NCBI RefSeq assembly: GCF_016745505.1
Contig: NZ_JAERUC010000069.1
Location: forward strand, 1 to 64,000
DNA length: 64,000 nt
DNA from: Streptomyces silvae
GTDB lineage: Bacteria; Actinomycetota; Actinomycetes; Streptomycetales; Streptomycetaceae
Direction: 5' to 3'
The position numbers and the translations under genes were made by a program. Positions 29,949-33,213 of the stretch are shown here, piece by piece (positions within the stretch are counted from its first letter, which is position 1; each line of letters begins with the position of its first letter). The notes beneath the pieces are model-generated. The model was not told the origin of the DNA. It made no database searches and saw only the letters and a program-made list of their open reading frames with translations.

Positions 29949-32165
29949 ATGGCTGACGAGATGGTGCTTCGCGCCCAGAGGTTCATCAACACGACCTATG
30001 GAAACGGTGCGACACTCGGTATTTCCAAGCTTGCGGAGGACGGAAAGACCGGCTGGCCGGTCATGTACGCCCTGACCCGAGCGCTGCAGTACGAGATGGG
30101 CATCACCGCGCTGTCGGACGCCTTCGGGCCGGCGACGATGGCCGCCATCGCCTCCACGTACGGCAAGATCGACGAAACGAACATCCCGTCGGCCAACTTC
30201 TGCCGGATCATCCAGTCCGCCCTGTACTGCAAGGGCTACGACGGCGGCGAGATCGACGGTACGTACAACGACCGCGTGCAGGCGTCAGTCGCCGAGCTGC
30301 ACCGGAACATGGGCGTGGACGGCACCTACCCGGGCAGCGCCTTGTGGCCGAAGACGGCCAAGGGTCTGTTCAACATGGACGCGTACACCACCGTCGGTGG
30401 CGGGTCGGACACCGTCCGTGCGATCCAGCAGTGGCTCAACGGCCAGTACGTCCTGCGCAAGGACTTCTACATCATCCCCTGTGACGGTTACCACTCCCGC
30501 GATGTCGCCAAGTCGATGCTGTTCGCCATCCAGTACGAACTCGGCATGGCGGACGGCGTGGCGAACGGTGTCTTCGGCCCGGGAACCCAGTCCGGCCTGA
30601 AGTCCCACACCGTCTCGACCTCCGTCAACGCGACCGGTGTGTGGGCACGGCTCTTCACCGCGGCCATGGTGCTGAACAAGAACGCCGTGGCGTTCGGGAG
30701 CTTCACCGAAGCGGTGCGCCAGGCCGTGGTGGGTTTCCAGGAGTTCTCCCGTCTTCCCGTCACGGGGGCAGGCGACTTCTCCACCTGGGCGTCCCTGCTC
30801 GTTTCCTACGGGGACCAGTCACGCAAGGGCACGGCCTGTGACGGCGTCACCCGGATCACTCCGGAGAAGGGCGCGGCGCTCAAGGCCGCCGGTTACGCGT
30901 ATGTCGGCCGCTACCTCTACAACCCGTACCCCGACGGGGACCTCCCCGAGAAGCAGATCCAGACGGGCGAGCTGTACGACATCAAGGAAGCCGGGCTGCG
31001 CTGCTACCCGATCTATCAGACGTGGAGCCGCTCCGCCGACTACTTCAGCACCCCCCAGGGCACCAGAGACGCCGTCGAGGCCATCAACTGGGCCCGCTTC
31101 CACGGGTTCAAGGCCGGCACCGTCATCTACTTCGCGGTCGACTACGACGCGATGGACGGCGAGGTCACCTCGTACGTCATCCCGCACTTCCGCGCCGTCG
31201 CCCGGACCATCAACGAGAACTCCCAGTACCACGTGGGCATCTACGGCGCGCGTAACGTGTGCCAGCGTGTGGTCGACGCGGGCTACGCGTCCGTGTGCAT
31301 GGTCTCCGACATGTCCAGCGGATTCTCCGGCAACCTCGGTTACCCGCTGCCCTCCAAGTGGTCCTTCGACCAGATATCCACCATCACCGTGGGTTCGGGC
31401 AGTGGATCCATCGAGATCGACAACAACATCGCCTCGGGCCGCGACACCGGCCAGGGGGACTTCGCCGCCCCCATCCCGTTCTACGGCATCGACACGGACC
31501 TCGACACGGACGCCTACCGTGCCTCGATGCTGACCGACGTCCAGACCTACCTGAAGTCGATCGGTGTCGCCGAGACCGGAGGGGACGGCTGGACGGACAC
31601 GGACTGGGCAACCCTCGGGGGAATCTCCACCACCGAGGCCTACGACGCGGTCGTCGACACGGACGCGCTCTTCACCTCACTGGCCCGGACGCTGAAGATT
31701 CGCAAGGCCCTGATCCAGGCTCCGGTGATGTGGGAACTGCGCAAGCTCAATCCCCTCGACTTCGTCGCCGACGCGGCTGTCCAAGCCGGTCAGAAGGATG
31801 ACTGCAGTACCGGCTGGGGACAGATCTTCGCCAAGACAGCCATCATGGCCCGCAACTACTGCATCGGCGAAGGCATCATCAGCGGAACGGGCATGGACTA
31901 CGACGACAAGGACGACCTGAAGACCGTGTGGGACAAACTCCACAACGACCAGGAGTACAACATACGTTCCGTCGCCTACACGCTGATCTTCAACGCGGAA
32001 CTGCTCGGCATTCCGCGCCCGGACCTCACCAGCGACGACCACGTCGCCGAAGCCGTGCTGGGCCGCTACAACGGGACGGGCCCCGCGGCCGAGCAGTACG
32101 GAGCGGAACTGATGGGCCTGTACAGGGTTCTGGAGAACTACAACGCCCTCTCGCGTGCCGTGTGA
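29949..32165 (+). CDS. Large DUF1906 / lysozyme-like peptidoglycan hydrolase without signal peptide
   Basis: 738-aa protein with four parts. Residues about 1-140 and 150-290 are two related repeats (compare ALTRALQYEMGIT...FGPATMAAI with MLFAIQYELGMA...FGPGTQSGL), probably wall binding. Residues about 295-515 form a DUF1906 GH25-like glycosidase domain (YAYVGRYLYN, VIYFAVDYDA, HVGIYGARNVC, IEIDNN). The tail (about 570-738) resembles lysozyme/transglycosylase folds: a candidate catalytic Glu596 (VMWELRK), STGWGQI at about 620, NIRSVAY and RYNGTGPAAEQYG at about 705. There is no signal peptide or TM segment. GAGAGGG precedes the ATG. First of three tightly spaced genes; codon use is less G/C-biased than around it. 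Confidence 0.88.
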   Translation: MADEMVLRAQRFINTTYGNGATLGISKLAEDGKTGWPVMYALTRALQYEMGITALSDAFGPATMAAIASTYGKIDETNIPSANFCRIIQSALYCKGYDGGEIDGTYNDRVQASVAELHRNMGVDGTYPGSALWPKTAKGLFNMDAYTTVGGGSDTVRAIQQWLNGQYVLRKDFYIIPCDGYHSRDVAKSMLFAIQYELGMADGVANGVFGPGTQSGLKSHTVSTSVNATGVWARLFTAAMVLNKNAVAFGSFTEAVRQAVVGFQEFSRLPVTGAGDFSTWASLLVSYGDQSRKGTACDGVTRITPEKGAALKAAGYAYVGRYLYNPYPDGDLPEKQIQTGELYDIKEAGLRCYPIYQTWSRSADYFSTPQGTRDAVEAINWARFHGFKAGTVIYFAVDYDAMDGEVTSYVIPHFRAVARTINENSQYHVGIYGARNVCQRVVDAGYASVCMVSDMSSGFSGNLGYPLPSKWSFDQISTITVGSGSGSIEIDNNIASGRDTGQGDFAAPIPFYGIDTDLDTDAYRASMLTDVQTYLKSIGVAETGGDGWTDTDWATLGGISTTEAYDAVVDTDALFTSLARTLKIRKALIQAPVMWELRKLNPLDFVADAAVQAGQKDDCSTGWGQIFAKTAIMARNYCIGEGIISGTGMDYDDKDDLKTVWDKLHNDQEYNIRSVAYTLIFNAELLGIPRPDLTSDDHVAEAVLGRYNGTGPAAEQYGAELMGLYRVLENYNALSRAV

Positions 32166-32191
32166 CGCGGGCACGTAAGGAAGTCGGAGAG

Positions 32192-32497
32192 ATGACCGGA
32201 CGGTGGCCCGCAGTCCTGGCGGCAAATCTGCTTCTCGGTATCCCCGCAGTGGTCCCGTTCTGGCTGCTGTGGTTTCTCGCGGCGAGCTGGGTGTCAGGTC
32301 CGCCGGCCGAGGAGAACGACGGAATGGCGCTCTGGCTGGTGATCGTCGTACCCGTCGTCGGCCTGTACGCCCTGCTCTGGTCGGCCGTCAACAGGCCGCT
32401 CGCCCGCCGAAGTTCGCTCACGCCCCGCACCTACTGGCTGCTCGGCGTCCTGGGCACTCTCCTGCCGACCACGGCACTCATCATCATTTACCCGTGA
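32192..32497 (+). CDS. Small three-TM membrane protein, holin-like in size and layout
   Basis: 101-aa protein with three membrane helices (about 8-32, 44-62, 80-99), an acidic loop after the first and a basic loop (RPLARRSS) before the last. GGAGAG is right before ATG 32192; a GTG at 32162 overlapping the previous stop is an alternative. Its own stop overlaps a GTG of the next gene. It matches no family I know; position between a signal-less hydrolase and an exported M15-like protein suggests a holin-like or export role, which is inference. Confidence 0.8.
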   Translation: MTGRWPAVLAANLLLGIPAVVPFWLLWFLAASWVSGPPAEENDGMALWLVIVVPVVGLYALLWSAVNRPLARRSSLTPRTYWLLGVLGTLLPTTALIIIYP

Positions 32498-32511
32498 AGG
32501 GAATCGAAGAC

Positions 32512-33213
32512 GTGAAGCTCGAAAAATCCGGGTTCTCCAGGCGAACCGTGCTGATCCAGGCCGGCGTCATCACCACCGCGGCGGCTGTGGCTTCTCTGAC
32601 TCCGGGCGTGGCGACAGCCGCGACGGGCAAGGCGACGGCAAGTGAGCCGGCCGACCTGCCCACATCCGCCAACGGCTGGCCCCTGGTGGAGCAGGCGAAC
32701 CATGTCTCCACCGTGTGGACCCGGCCCGTGCCCGGCACCGGACTGGACTTCGACGTCCGGATCGGGGACGCGGAAACCATTCTGCTCCATGTCATCCGAC
32801 GTTTTCACTACGAAGTCGAGCAGCTTCATGGTGCCGGTCTGGCCGGCTGGCAGGCGATCGGCAGTGTGAACAAGAAGAGACCGGAATCGAATCTTTCCTC
32901 CGGTACGGCTGTGCGTATCCGCCCCGGTGCCGCTGCCCGGGGAAGCTTCTTCCCGCTCCAGGAAATCGTGCTGCGTGACATCCTCGCCGACTGCGAGGGA
33001 ACAGTCCGTTGGGGCGGTGACGACTCCCAGGTCGACGAGTCGTTGTTCTACCTCGATCGCGGCCCCGACGATCCGCAGATCCGTCGACTGGCCACCAGAC
33101 TCCGCAAGGGAGAAGTCACTCCGGGTCTCGGCGCCGGCAGTGCCGTGAACGTCATGGCGCGGTCCCGGCAGGAACGCGCCGGCCGCCTCGCCGCGGAACA
33201 GCGCAAGAGCTGA
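32512..33213 (+). CDS. Tat-exported M15-peptidase-like protein lacking the zinc ligands
   Basis: 233-aa protein. A twin-arginine signal (SRRTVLI, R10-R11) and Ala-rich core predict folded export with cleavage near residue 36. The rest resembles actinobacterial D-Ala-D-Ala carboxypeptidases of family M15: SxHxxGxAxD appears as SNLSSGTAVR (126-135), TVRWGGDD is kept, and the DExHF segment reads DESLF (175-179). All three zinc ligands are thus replaced (H to L128, D to R135, H to L178), so it should be inactive as a peptidase and may bind wall peptide. GTG 32512 has AGGGA upstream; GTG 32494 overlapping the previous stop is an alternative. Confidence 0.8.
   Translation: MKLEKSGFSRRTVLIQAGVITTAAAVASLTPGVATAATGKATASEPADLPTSANGWPLVEQANHVSTVWTRPVPGTGLDFDVRIGDAETILLHVIRRFHYEVEQLHGAGLAGWQAIGSVNKKRPESNLSSGTAVRIRPGAAARGSFFPLQEIVLRDILADCEGTVRWGGDDSQVDESLFYLDRGPDDPQIRRLATRLRKGEVTPGLGAGSAVNVMARSRQERAGRLAAEQRKS

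What the first reader, a model, noticed from the sequence alone, without database searches (positions are those of the whole stretch)
29949..33213. Three-gene lysin/holin-like cassette with lower G+C
The sequence shows a signal-less hydrolase-like protein, a 101-aa three-TM protein and a Tat-exported M15-like protein in one tight operon, flanked by AT-rich DNA and with less biased codon use than its neighbours. Known parallels are phage lysis cassettes and holin-like release of large proteins. I infer a release, killing or cell-wall remodelling system; no phage structural or contractile-injection genes are nearby.
Basis: partly seen in the sequence, partly recalled or inferred. Interest (0 to 1): 0.85.

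Follow-up and report, generated by a model that had tools for sequence, protein, structure and literature searches.

The report
Wall-cutting bacterial toxin with escort gene
A soil bacterium carries a small gene set that looks like a cell-wall-cutting weapon against rival bacteria, with a small membrane protein that may protect the owner and an exported, apparently dead enzyme that may carry the weapon out of the cell.

Summary
The three genes are real and in a tight operon. It does not look like a holin/lysin cassette. Gene 1 (738 aa, no signal peptide) has peptidoglycan-binding repeats, an Rv2525c-like barrel, and a C-terminal domain whose predicted fold matches the T6SS muramidase toxin Tse3. 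In relatives the same N-terminal chassis carries other C-terminal domains: TelC-like, Rhs repeats, Ybfg_C and others. Gene 3 carries a Tat signal and an M15/VanY-type fold, but only 1 of 46 sequences keeps all three zinc ligands; the window's copy keeps none. Genes 1 and 3 co-occur in 33 genomes (36 have gene 1, 34 have gene 3, of 150). Gene 2 is a three-TM protein; its family, and the unrelated 3TM-CCDN-like family that replaces it, also occur alone and stay open where gene 1 has decayed, as immunity genes do. A 2025 eLife paper already predicted the TelC + 3TM-CCDN + VanY version as a conflict system. The window is a variant with a different warhead and membrane partner that I did not find described. 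My most novel reading: gene 3 is a Tat escort that carries signal-less gene 1 out. This fits the anatomy but is unproven.

The parts
29949..32165 (+). gene 1: signal-less 738-aa wall-directed toxin candidate
   Evidence: ORF with its start behind a GA-rich stretch; Pfam PG_binding_1 and Rv2525c_GlyHyd-like; AlphaFold model, mean pLDDT 90.6
29949..30818 (+). N-terminal region with peptidoglycan-binding repeats (residues 1-290)
   Evidence: PF01471, E 1.3e-13, 2 stretches
30822..31457 (+). Rv2525c-like TIM barrel (residues 292-503), acidic residues D398 and D400 invariant in alignment A1
   Evidence: PF08924 E 6.5e-51; 4pmr Z 23.3 over 198 residues, rmsd 2.6; invariant columns
31545..32156 (+). 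C-terminal Tse3-like muramidase domain (residues 533-736), candidate catalytic Glu596
   Evidence: Tse3 4m5e Z 12.8, 176 residues, rmsd 3.8, 17% identity; Glu in 17 of 22 rows (window included), Ala in 5
32192..32497 (+). gene 2: 101-aa three-TM protein (family A), candidate immunity protein
   Evidence: three hydrophobic segments; same family alone in other genomes
32512..33213 (+). gene 3: 233-aa Tat-signal protein with M15/VanY-type fold and no zinc ligands
32512..32628 (+). Tat signal peptide of gene 3 (residues 1-39, SRRTVL ... ATA; end set by eye)
   Evidence: twin arginine invariant in 41 of 41 rows of A2 (start choice favoured RR, five rows left out); TIGR02811 E 5e-5, below its cut-off
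32662..33159 (+). M15-like pseudoenzyme domain of gene 3 (residues 51-216); ligand positions 128, 135, 178 are L, R, L
   Evidence: phrog_1512 residues 51-216; ligand table

Best explanation
A conflict (bacteriocin-like) operon. Gene 1 is a toxin made of a wall-binding chassis (peptidoglycan-binding repeats plus an Rv2525c barrel) and a swappable C-terminal warhead, here a Tse3-like muramidase that would cut glycan strands of neighbouring cells from outside. Gene 2 is a membrane protein with a conserved acidic loop (around E41, D43, G44), placed outside by its charge pattern, that would protect the producer where the warhead acts. Gene 3 is an exported, catalytically dead M15-fold protein that works with the chassis, not with the warhead. 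My preferred role for it is a Tat escort: it binds folded gene 1 in the cytoplasm and carries it across by its own twin-arginine signal. Shown here: gene anatomy, predicted folds, ligand loss, co-occurrence, warhead swapping, solitary and retained small membrane genes. Inferred: muramidase activity, killing, membrane topology, immunity, the gene 1-gene 3 complex and Tat export.
For: Tse3-like fold, with spacing E596/D604/D608 and G622..Q625 close to Tse3 E250/E258/D262 and motif 2 (PMC3792639 passages; spacing read by eye). Same chassis with TelC-like warhead (5ukh Z 9.1 against 3.6 for the next row), N-terminal amidase-like domain (by eye), Rhs repeats, Ybfg_C, DUF4474; 22 C-terminal blastp clusters among 69 proteins outside Streptomyces (an upper bound on unrelated families). 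Genes 1 and 3 in 33 common genomes of 36 and 34; gene 3 downstream on the same strand in 43 of 49 fetched loci, ends overlapping in two. Gene 3 is kept across all three warhead types, and its distances follow the gene 1 chassis (r 0.80, 37 rows). No hydrophobic N-terminus on gene 1 in 36 of 36 relatives, in-frame upstream included; Tat signal on gene 3. Small TM families occur alone: family A at 20 of 27 places, family B in 41 of 70 genomes without genes 1/3. In 8 loci found through gene 1 or 3 where gene 1 is broken or truncated, the small TM frame is open in 8 of 8, gene 3 in 5 of 8.
Against: No activity, killing, immunity or export was measured. 13 of 37 intact cassettes have no small TM gene between genes 1 and 3. 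Candidate catalytic Glu is Ala in 5 of 22 Tse3-class rows. Outside Streptomyces gene 3 was not found (profile match in 4 of 80 loci L127-L206, all four Streptomyces), although the compact relatives there also lack a signal (13 of 22 starts examined); so the chassis can exist without the escort, and a YbfG (DUF1906) protein is listed in the cell-free phase of B. amyloliquefaciens (PMC12020853, passages). Gene 3 stays open in 5 of 8 loci with broken gene 1, which an escort would not need. Solitary family A genes share neighbours in some genomes, which also fits an unrelated resident function. Gene 1/gene 3 distance correlation can come from common descent alone; within the Tse3 class gene 3 follows the chassis (r 0.65) hardly better than the warhead (r 0.58). 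Several broken copies may be assembly errors.
Confidence: 0.5

Rival explanations
1. Same toxin, but gene 3 is a second, chassis-specific immunity or wall-shielding protein sent out by Tat to protect the producer's own peptidoglycan; gene 1 leaves by another route (lysis or an unknown secretion path).
For: Immunity proteins of wall-cutting toxins act outside the membrane (Tsi3, PMC3792639 abstract and passages); gene 3 keeps an M15-type, possibly peptidoglycan-binding fold without its ligands; it stays open in 5 of 8 loci whose gene 1 is broken; relatives outside Streptomyces manage without gene 3.
Against: Gene 3 without any gene 1 match was seen in 1 of 34 genomes, and the three copies with no gene 1 or only a short remnant beside them (L108, L109, L234) are frameshifted, lack the signal or are a fragment; it does not change with the warhead.
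Confidence: 0.27
2. Phage-type lysis or holin-mediated release cassette: gene 2 is a holin, genes 1 and 3 are lysins.
For: Three-TM small protein beside wall-enzyme folds; gene 3 resembles mycobacteriophage lysin A over about half its length at about 34-36% identity; its profile's only PDB hit at E <= 0.01 is ChiX (E 0.0024; its place in the Serratia chitinase release path is recalled).
Against: Gene 3 has lost its catalytic ligands and has its own Tat signal; gene 2 is absent or replaced in 33 of 37 intact cassettes and stands alone elsewhere; tblastn finds gene 1 in 2 of 50,697 phage records, and the viral-contig scans gave no relative of either gene (close relatives only).
Confidence: 0.07
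3. Effector carried by an extracellular contractile injection system encoded elsewhere in the genome.
For: A tail-sheath family gene is in 29 of 37 genomes with the system against 64 of 113 without (Fisher p 0.02, uncorrected for several tests), and in the window's own genome at C64.
Against: 8 of 37 genomes with the system have no sheath match, among them G082 with four gene 1 loci; sheath matches also include phages.
Confidence: 0.06
4. A housekeeping wall-remodelling or sporulation operon.
For: All three parts point to the cell wall or membrane; the Rv2525c family has a Tat-exported, single-domain member (titles).
Against: Patchy: gene 1 in 36 of 150 genomes of the genus, up to four loci in one genome, broken copies, swappable C-terminal domain.
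Confidence: 0.1

Closest known systems
PGBD + Rv2525c barrel + TelC proteins with 3TM-CCDN and secreted VanY-family protein (predicted conflict system, eLife 2025, PMC12419801, section 31 read in full)
   Same: Same chassis, same kinds of partner: a small three-TM gene and a secreted M15/VanY-type gene; the TelC-class loci found here fit that description
   Different: Window warhead is Tse3-like; the three-TM gene has no cysteines and does not align with the 3TM-CCDN-like family found here (hhalign probability 8%); gene 3 has a Tat signal and lacks peptidase ligands
Tse3/Tsi3 T6SS muramidase effector and immunity (PMC3792639, abstract and passages)
   Same: Predicted fold of residues 533-736, candidate Glu and acidic ligand spacing
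   Different: Chassis of peptidoglycan-binding and barrel domains; neighbouring genes are a three-TM protein and an M15-type protein, not an Ig-fold immunity gene
Rv2525c (4pmr and kin)
   Same: Barrel fold, Z 23.3
   Different: Rv2525c carries its own Tat signal and no warhead (title; rest recalled)
Tat hitchhiker pairs (ternary case in PMC4273604, abstract start in search listing; MelC1/MelC2 of Streptomyces recalled)
   Same: Signal-less partner plus partner with twin-arginine signal, adjacent genes
   Different: No complex or co-export shown here; the carrier would be a dead M15 fold

Membership tests
PGBD-Rv2525c-TelC / 3TM-CCDN / VanY conflict operon | PG-binding repeats plus Rv2525c-like barrel | tested here: met
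PGBD-Rv2525c-TelC / 3TM-CCDN / VanY conflict operon | TelC-family C-terminal domain | tested here: inconclusive
   Residues 533-736 match Tse3 (Z 12.8) and TelC is not listed; TelC match found for the other warhead class
PGBD-Rv2525c-TelC / 3TM-CCDN / VanY conflict operon | three-TM partner with two conserved cysteines (3TM-CCDN) | tested here: not met
   gene 2 has no cysteine (sequence); family A against B hhalign probability 8%
PGBD-Rv2525c-TelC / 3TM-CCDN / VanY conflict operon | secreted VanY/M15-superfamily partner | tested here: met
   Tat-type signal and M15-type match
active M15 peptidase | zinc ligands H, D, H | tested here: not met
   window L, R, L; all three present in 1 of 46 rows (motif positions recalled)
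Tse3-like muramidase | SLT-type fold with catalytic Glu | tested here: met
   Z 12.8 and E596 by motif position; activity not tested
Tse3-like muramidase | cognate Ig-fold Tsi3-type immunity gene | tested here: not met
   the next genes are a three-TM protein and an M15-type protein
Tse3-like muramidase | delivery by a type VI secretion system | not tested
   -
holin-endolysin cassette | holin tied to the lysin gene | tested here: not met
   gene 2 family: 6 of 27 places beside genes 1/3 (two of these with broken gene 1), 1 beside a gene 1 remnant
holin-endolysin cassette | membrane pore formation | not testable with these tools
   -
Tat hitchhiker pair | one partner with RR signal, other without signal, adjacent genes | tested here: met
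Tat hitchhiker pair | complex formed before export; export of the signal-less partner depends on the other | not testable with these tools

The most novel reading that the evidence does not exclude
A modular bacterial toxin family whose signal-less, wall-binding chassis is exported fully folded by a dedicated Tat escort that evolved from an M15 peptidase and lost its catalysis: a hitchhiker secretion route for polymorphic wall-cutting toxins in Streptomyces, with interchangeable muramidase, lipid II-cutting (TelC-like) and amidase warheads and replaceable small membrane immunity proteins.
Probability: 0.35. Interest if true: 0.8.

Novelty: new variant of a known kind. Interest (0 to 1): 0.58.

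Why it matters
How large signal-less toxins leave Gram-positive cells is often unclear. Here the pairing of a signal-less toxin with a Tat-signal pseudoenzyme gives a simple test. It would show that a Tat escort can serve as a secretion route for polymorphic toxins, and it adds a muramidase warhead and a new candidate membrane immunity family to a conflict system that the eLife paper predicted from sequence and structure models.

Tried and rejected
Holin/lysin and phage origin: see the rivals. The phage record that matched gene 1 (MT836466, unannotated) carries ORFs that look conjugation-related by eye, so it may be a piece of an integrative element.

Gene 2 as a warhead-specific partner: rejected as a strict rule, because the same small TM family (B) goes with both Tse3-like and TelC-like warheads. 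Gene 2 (A) and B as one family: hhalign probability 8%. A three-TM gene beside a Tse3-like warhead in Paenibacillus (L157) scored only 5 bits against family A, so kinship is not claimed.

Sequence searches of genes 1 and 3 against PDB chains gave nothing at E <= 1; the C-terminal profiles gave no useful hit (A3: best E 0.041, ribosomal protein; A5: none at E <= 1). Foldseek alone did not show TelC for the second warhead; the second look did. Phylum-wide search: gene 1 in 6 of 396 genomes, gene 3 in 3 of 396, the latter three all of the own genus. Papers searched for the window's variant: DUF1906, Rv2525c, ybfG + Bacillus subtilis, Tse3 + muramidase + E250, Tse3 + Tsi3 + crystal structure, Streptomyces + Tat + signal peptide + hitchhiker, Rv2525c + polymorphic toxin, Streptomyces + Tse3 + twin-arginine; in these listings, and in the passages read of three papers (PMC12419801, PMC12020853, PMC3792639), I saw no Tse3-like version described.
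Full report
Observation. Three genes on the + strand at 29949-32165, 32192-32497 and 32512-33213, separated by 26 and 14 nt. GC of the cassette is 0.651 against 0.726 for the window; GC3 is 0.897, 0.832 and 0.773 against a mean of 0.929 (sd 0.041) of 43 mechanically called genes, gene 1 among them. The flanks are only mildly poorer in GC (0.687 upstream, 0.717 downstream). The genus is taken to be Streptomyces: contig G001:C336, same genus as the window, has the same length (38223) as a contig titled Streptomyces.

Gene 1. No signal peptide; Pfam gives PG_binding_1 and the Rv2525c-like domain. 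The AlphaFold model (mean pLDDT 90.6) matches Rv2525c at residues 292-503 (Z 23.3, rmsd 2.6, 198 residues) and Tse3, the T6SS muramidase, at 533-736 (Z 12.8, rmsd 3.8, 176 residues, 17% identity; other Tse3 entries Z 11.9-12.6). The domain is mostly helical, for which Z under about 13 alone can be a common arrangement; the match is helped by the Glu and acidic spacing E596/D604/D608 and the TGWGQ motif, which resemble the Tse3 residues reported in PMC3792639 (passages). Glu is kept in 17 of 22 rows (window included) and is Ala in 5. No sequence search found Tse3.

Relatives. Gene 1 is in 36 of 150 genomes of the genus, gene 3 in 34 of 150, both in 33 (Fisher p 1.4e-28). One-sided cases: gene 1 only in G048 (cut by a contig end; a profile later found a partial gene 3 match there, E 5e-12), G053 (weak partial match) and G126 (pieces in different frames); gene 3 only in G130 (fragment). 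Of 49 loci fetched with flanks (L062-L110), 43 have gene 3 downstream of gene 1 on the same strand. For the tree I used 37 rows (window plus 36; 10 of 46 gene 1 rows, broken, short or cut, were dropped). On the chassis tree (residues 1-503, quick method, 8 of 34 inner branches open) there are 22 Tse3-class, 13 TelC-class and 2 rows with an N-terminal amidase-like domain and no C-terminal warhead; warheads change at least twice and the middle gene at least six times. The middle gene is family A in 4, family B in 20 and missing in 13 of 37 (in L089 family B rests). The second warhead was folded by itself (mean pLDDT 92.4) and matches TelC 5ukh at Z 9.1, next row 3.6, although the Foldseek list shows no TelC chain.

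Outside the genus. Among 69 proteins over 600 aa that are not from Streptomyces, the C-terminal parts fall into 22 blastp clusters, 15 of them single; distant kin can be split, so this is an upper bound. Pfam names Rhs repeats, Ybfg_C, DUF4474 and an LCAT-like stretch among eight scanned. Of 79 proteins searched, the TelC-like profile matches 12 and the Tse3-like profile five: four of Streptomyces and one of Paenibacillus with the Glu conserved. Of 22 proteins whose starts I examined, 9, all large versions, have a hydrophobic N-terminal extension like a Sec signal; the other 13 do not. Gene 3 was found by profile in 4 of the 80 loci, all Streptomyces.

Gene 3. phrog_1512 endolysin E 6.7e-17; Pfam M15_4 in 5 of 41 rows. 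Of 46 rows, all three zinc ligands are present only in L077; first His 6, Asp 1, last His 20 of 46; the window has none. The twin arginine is invariant in 41 of 41 rows of A2, but the start choice favoured RR and five rows (L069, L078, L107, L108, L109) were left out; in L069 and L078 an RR signal lies in frame just upstream, in L107 and L108 in another frame (frameshifted copies), and in L109 I saw none. Pfam's own Tat model rings in only 4 of 41.

Small membrane genes. Family A (gene 2): 27 places in 26 of 150 genomes; 6 beside genes 1/3 (two with broken gene 1), 1 beside a gene 1 remnant, 20 elsewhere, 4 of these weak (places compared). Of nine such places read, eight have no gene 1 or 3 match within about 11 kb, the ninth a gene 1 remnant. 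Family B (two cysteines, VP.[YW]VNP; it fits the 3TM-CCDN of the eLife paper): 70 of 150 genomes at E <= 0.001, 41 of them without genes 1/3; the window's own genome has a weak match on another contig. 10 of 11 places read had no gene 1 or 3 nearby, one a gene 3 fragment. Where gene 1 is interrupted or truncated and a small TM gene is present, the latter is open in 8 of 8 loci found through gene 1 or 3 (L083, L084, L086, L102, L105, L106, L107, L108), gene 3 in 5 of 8; two more (L234, L243) were found through the small gene itself and are biased. Some broken copies may be assembly errors.

Site. In relatives the helicase beside the cassette is conserved (86-90% within query 40-1779 in all 12 congeners compared), but in the rows listed the cassette DNA maps elsewhere or is absent: in G009 it lies about 469 kb from that helicase. 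This fits horizontal movement.

Literature. The eLife 2025 paper (PMC12419801; section 31 in full, other passages by search) predicts PGBD + Rv2525c + TelC proteins in operon with 3TM-CCDN and a secreted VanY-family peptidase as a conflict system. The window is therefore a variant of a predicted kind. What I add: Tse3-like warhead, new three-TM partner, loss of peptidase ligands and Tat signal in gene 3, near-perfect gene 1/gene 3 co-occurrence, and solitary small membrane genes.

Mechanism. Because gene 3 stays while the warhead changes, it should act with the chassis. Because it carries the only signal and lacks the catalytic ligands, an escort that takes gene 1 through Tat is the simplest single role; a wall-side protective role is the main rival, and gene 3 staying open beside broken gene 1 in 5 of 8 loci speaks for that rival. 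The contractile-injection rival gets weak support from sheath co-occurrence (29 of 37 against 64 of 113, p 0.02, uncorrected) but 8 genomes lack a sheath match.

Noticed in passing
L077:8961-9695: The only gene 3 relative with all three zinc ligands; its neighbour's Tse3-like domain has Ala at the catalytic Glu position.
   Followed up: partly
L098:5504-7669 and L100:1988-4195: Gene 1 relatives with an N-terminal PGRP/amidase-like domain (by eye) and no C-terminal warhead; gene 3 follows with overlapping ends.
   Followed up: partly
L141, L149, L150, L152, L153, L154, L174: Firmicutes proteins with the same chassis, an apparent Sec signal and a C-terminal part of one cluster; L141 and L153 were scanned and hold Rhs repeats.
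   Followed up: partly
L235-L242: Solitary family A genes, some with shared neighbours (a similar ORF in L237 and L240, another in L240 and L242), possibly domesticated immunity genes.
   Followed up: partly
L111: Record MT836466, filed as a phage, carries ORFs that look conjugation-related and a chassis protein with a hydrophobic C-terminus followed by a small TM gene.
   Followed up: no
L123:5353-8362: Gene 1 relative from another genus of the same phylum (2.4 Mb genome) with TelC-like C-terminal part, followed by a TM gene; no gene 3 match in the stretch.
   Followed up: partly
G000:C64:50928-51341: Tail-sheath family match elsewhere in the window's genome.
   Followed up: no
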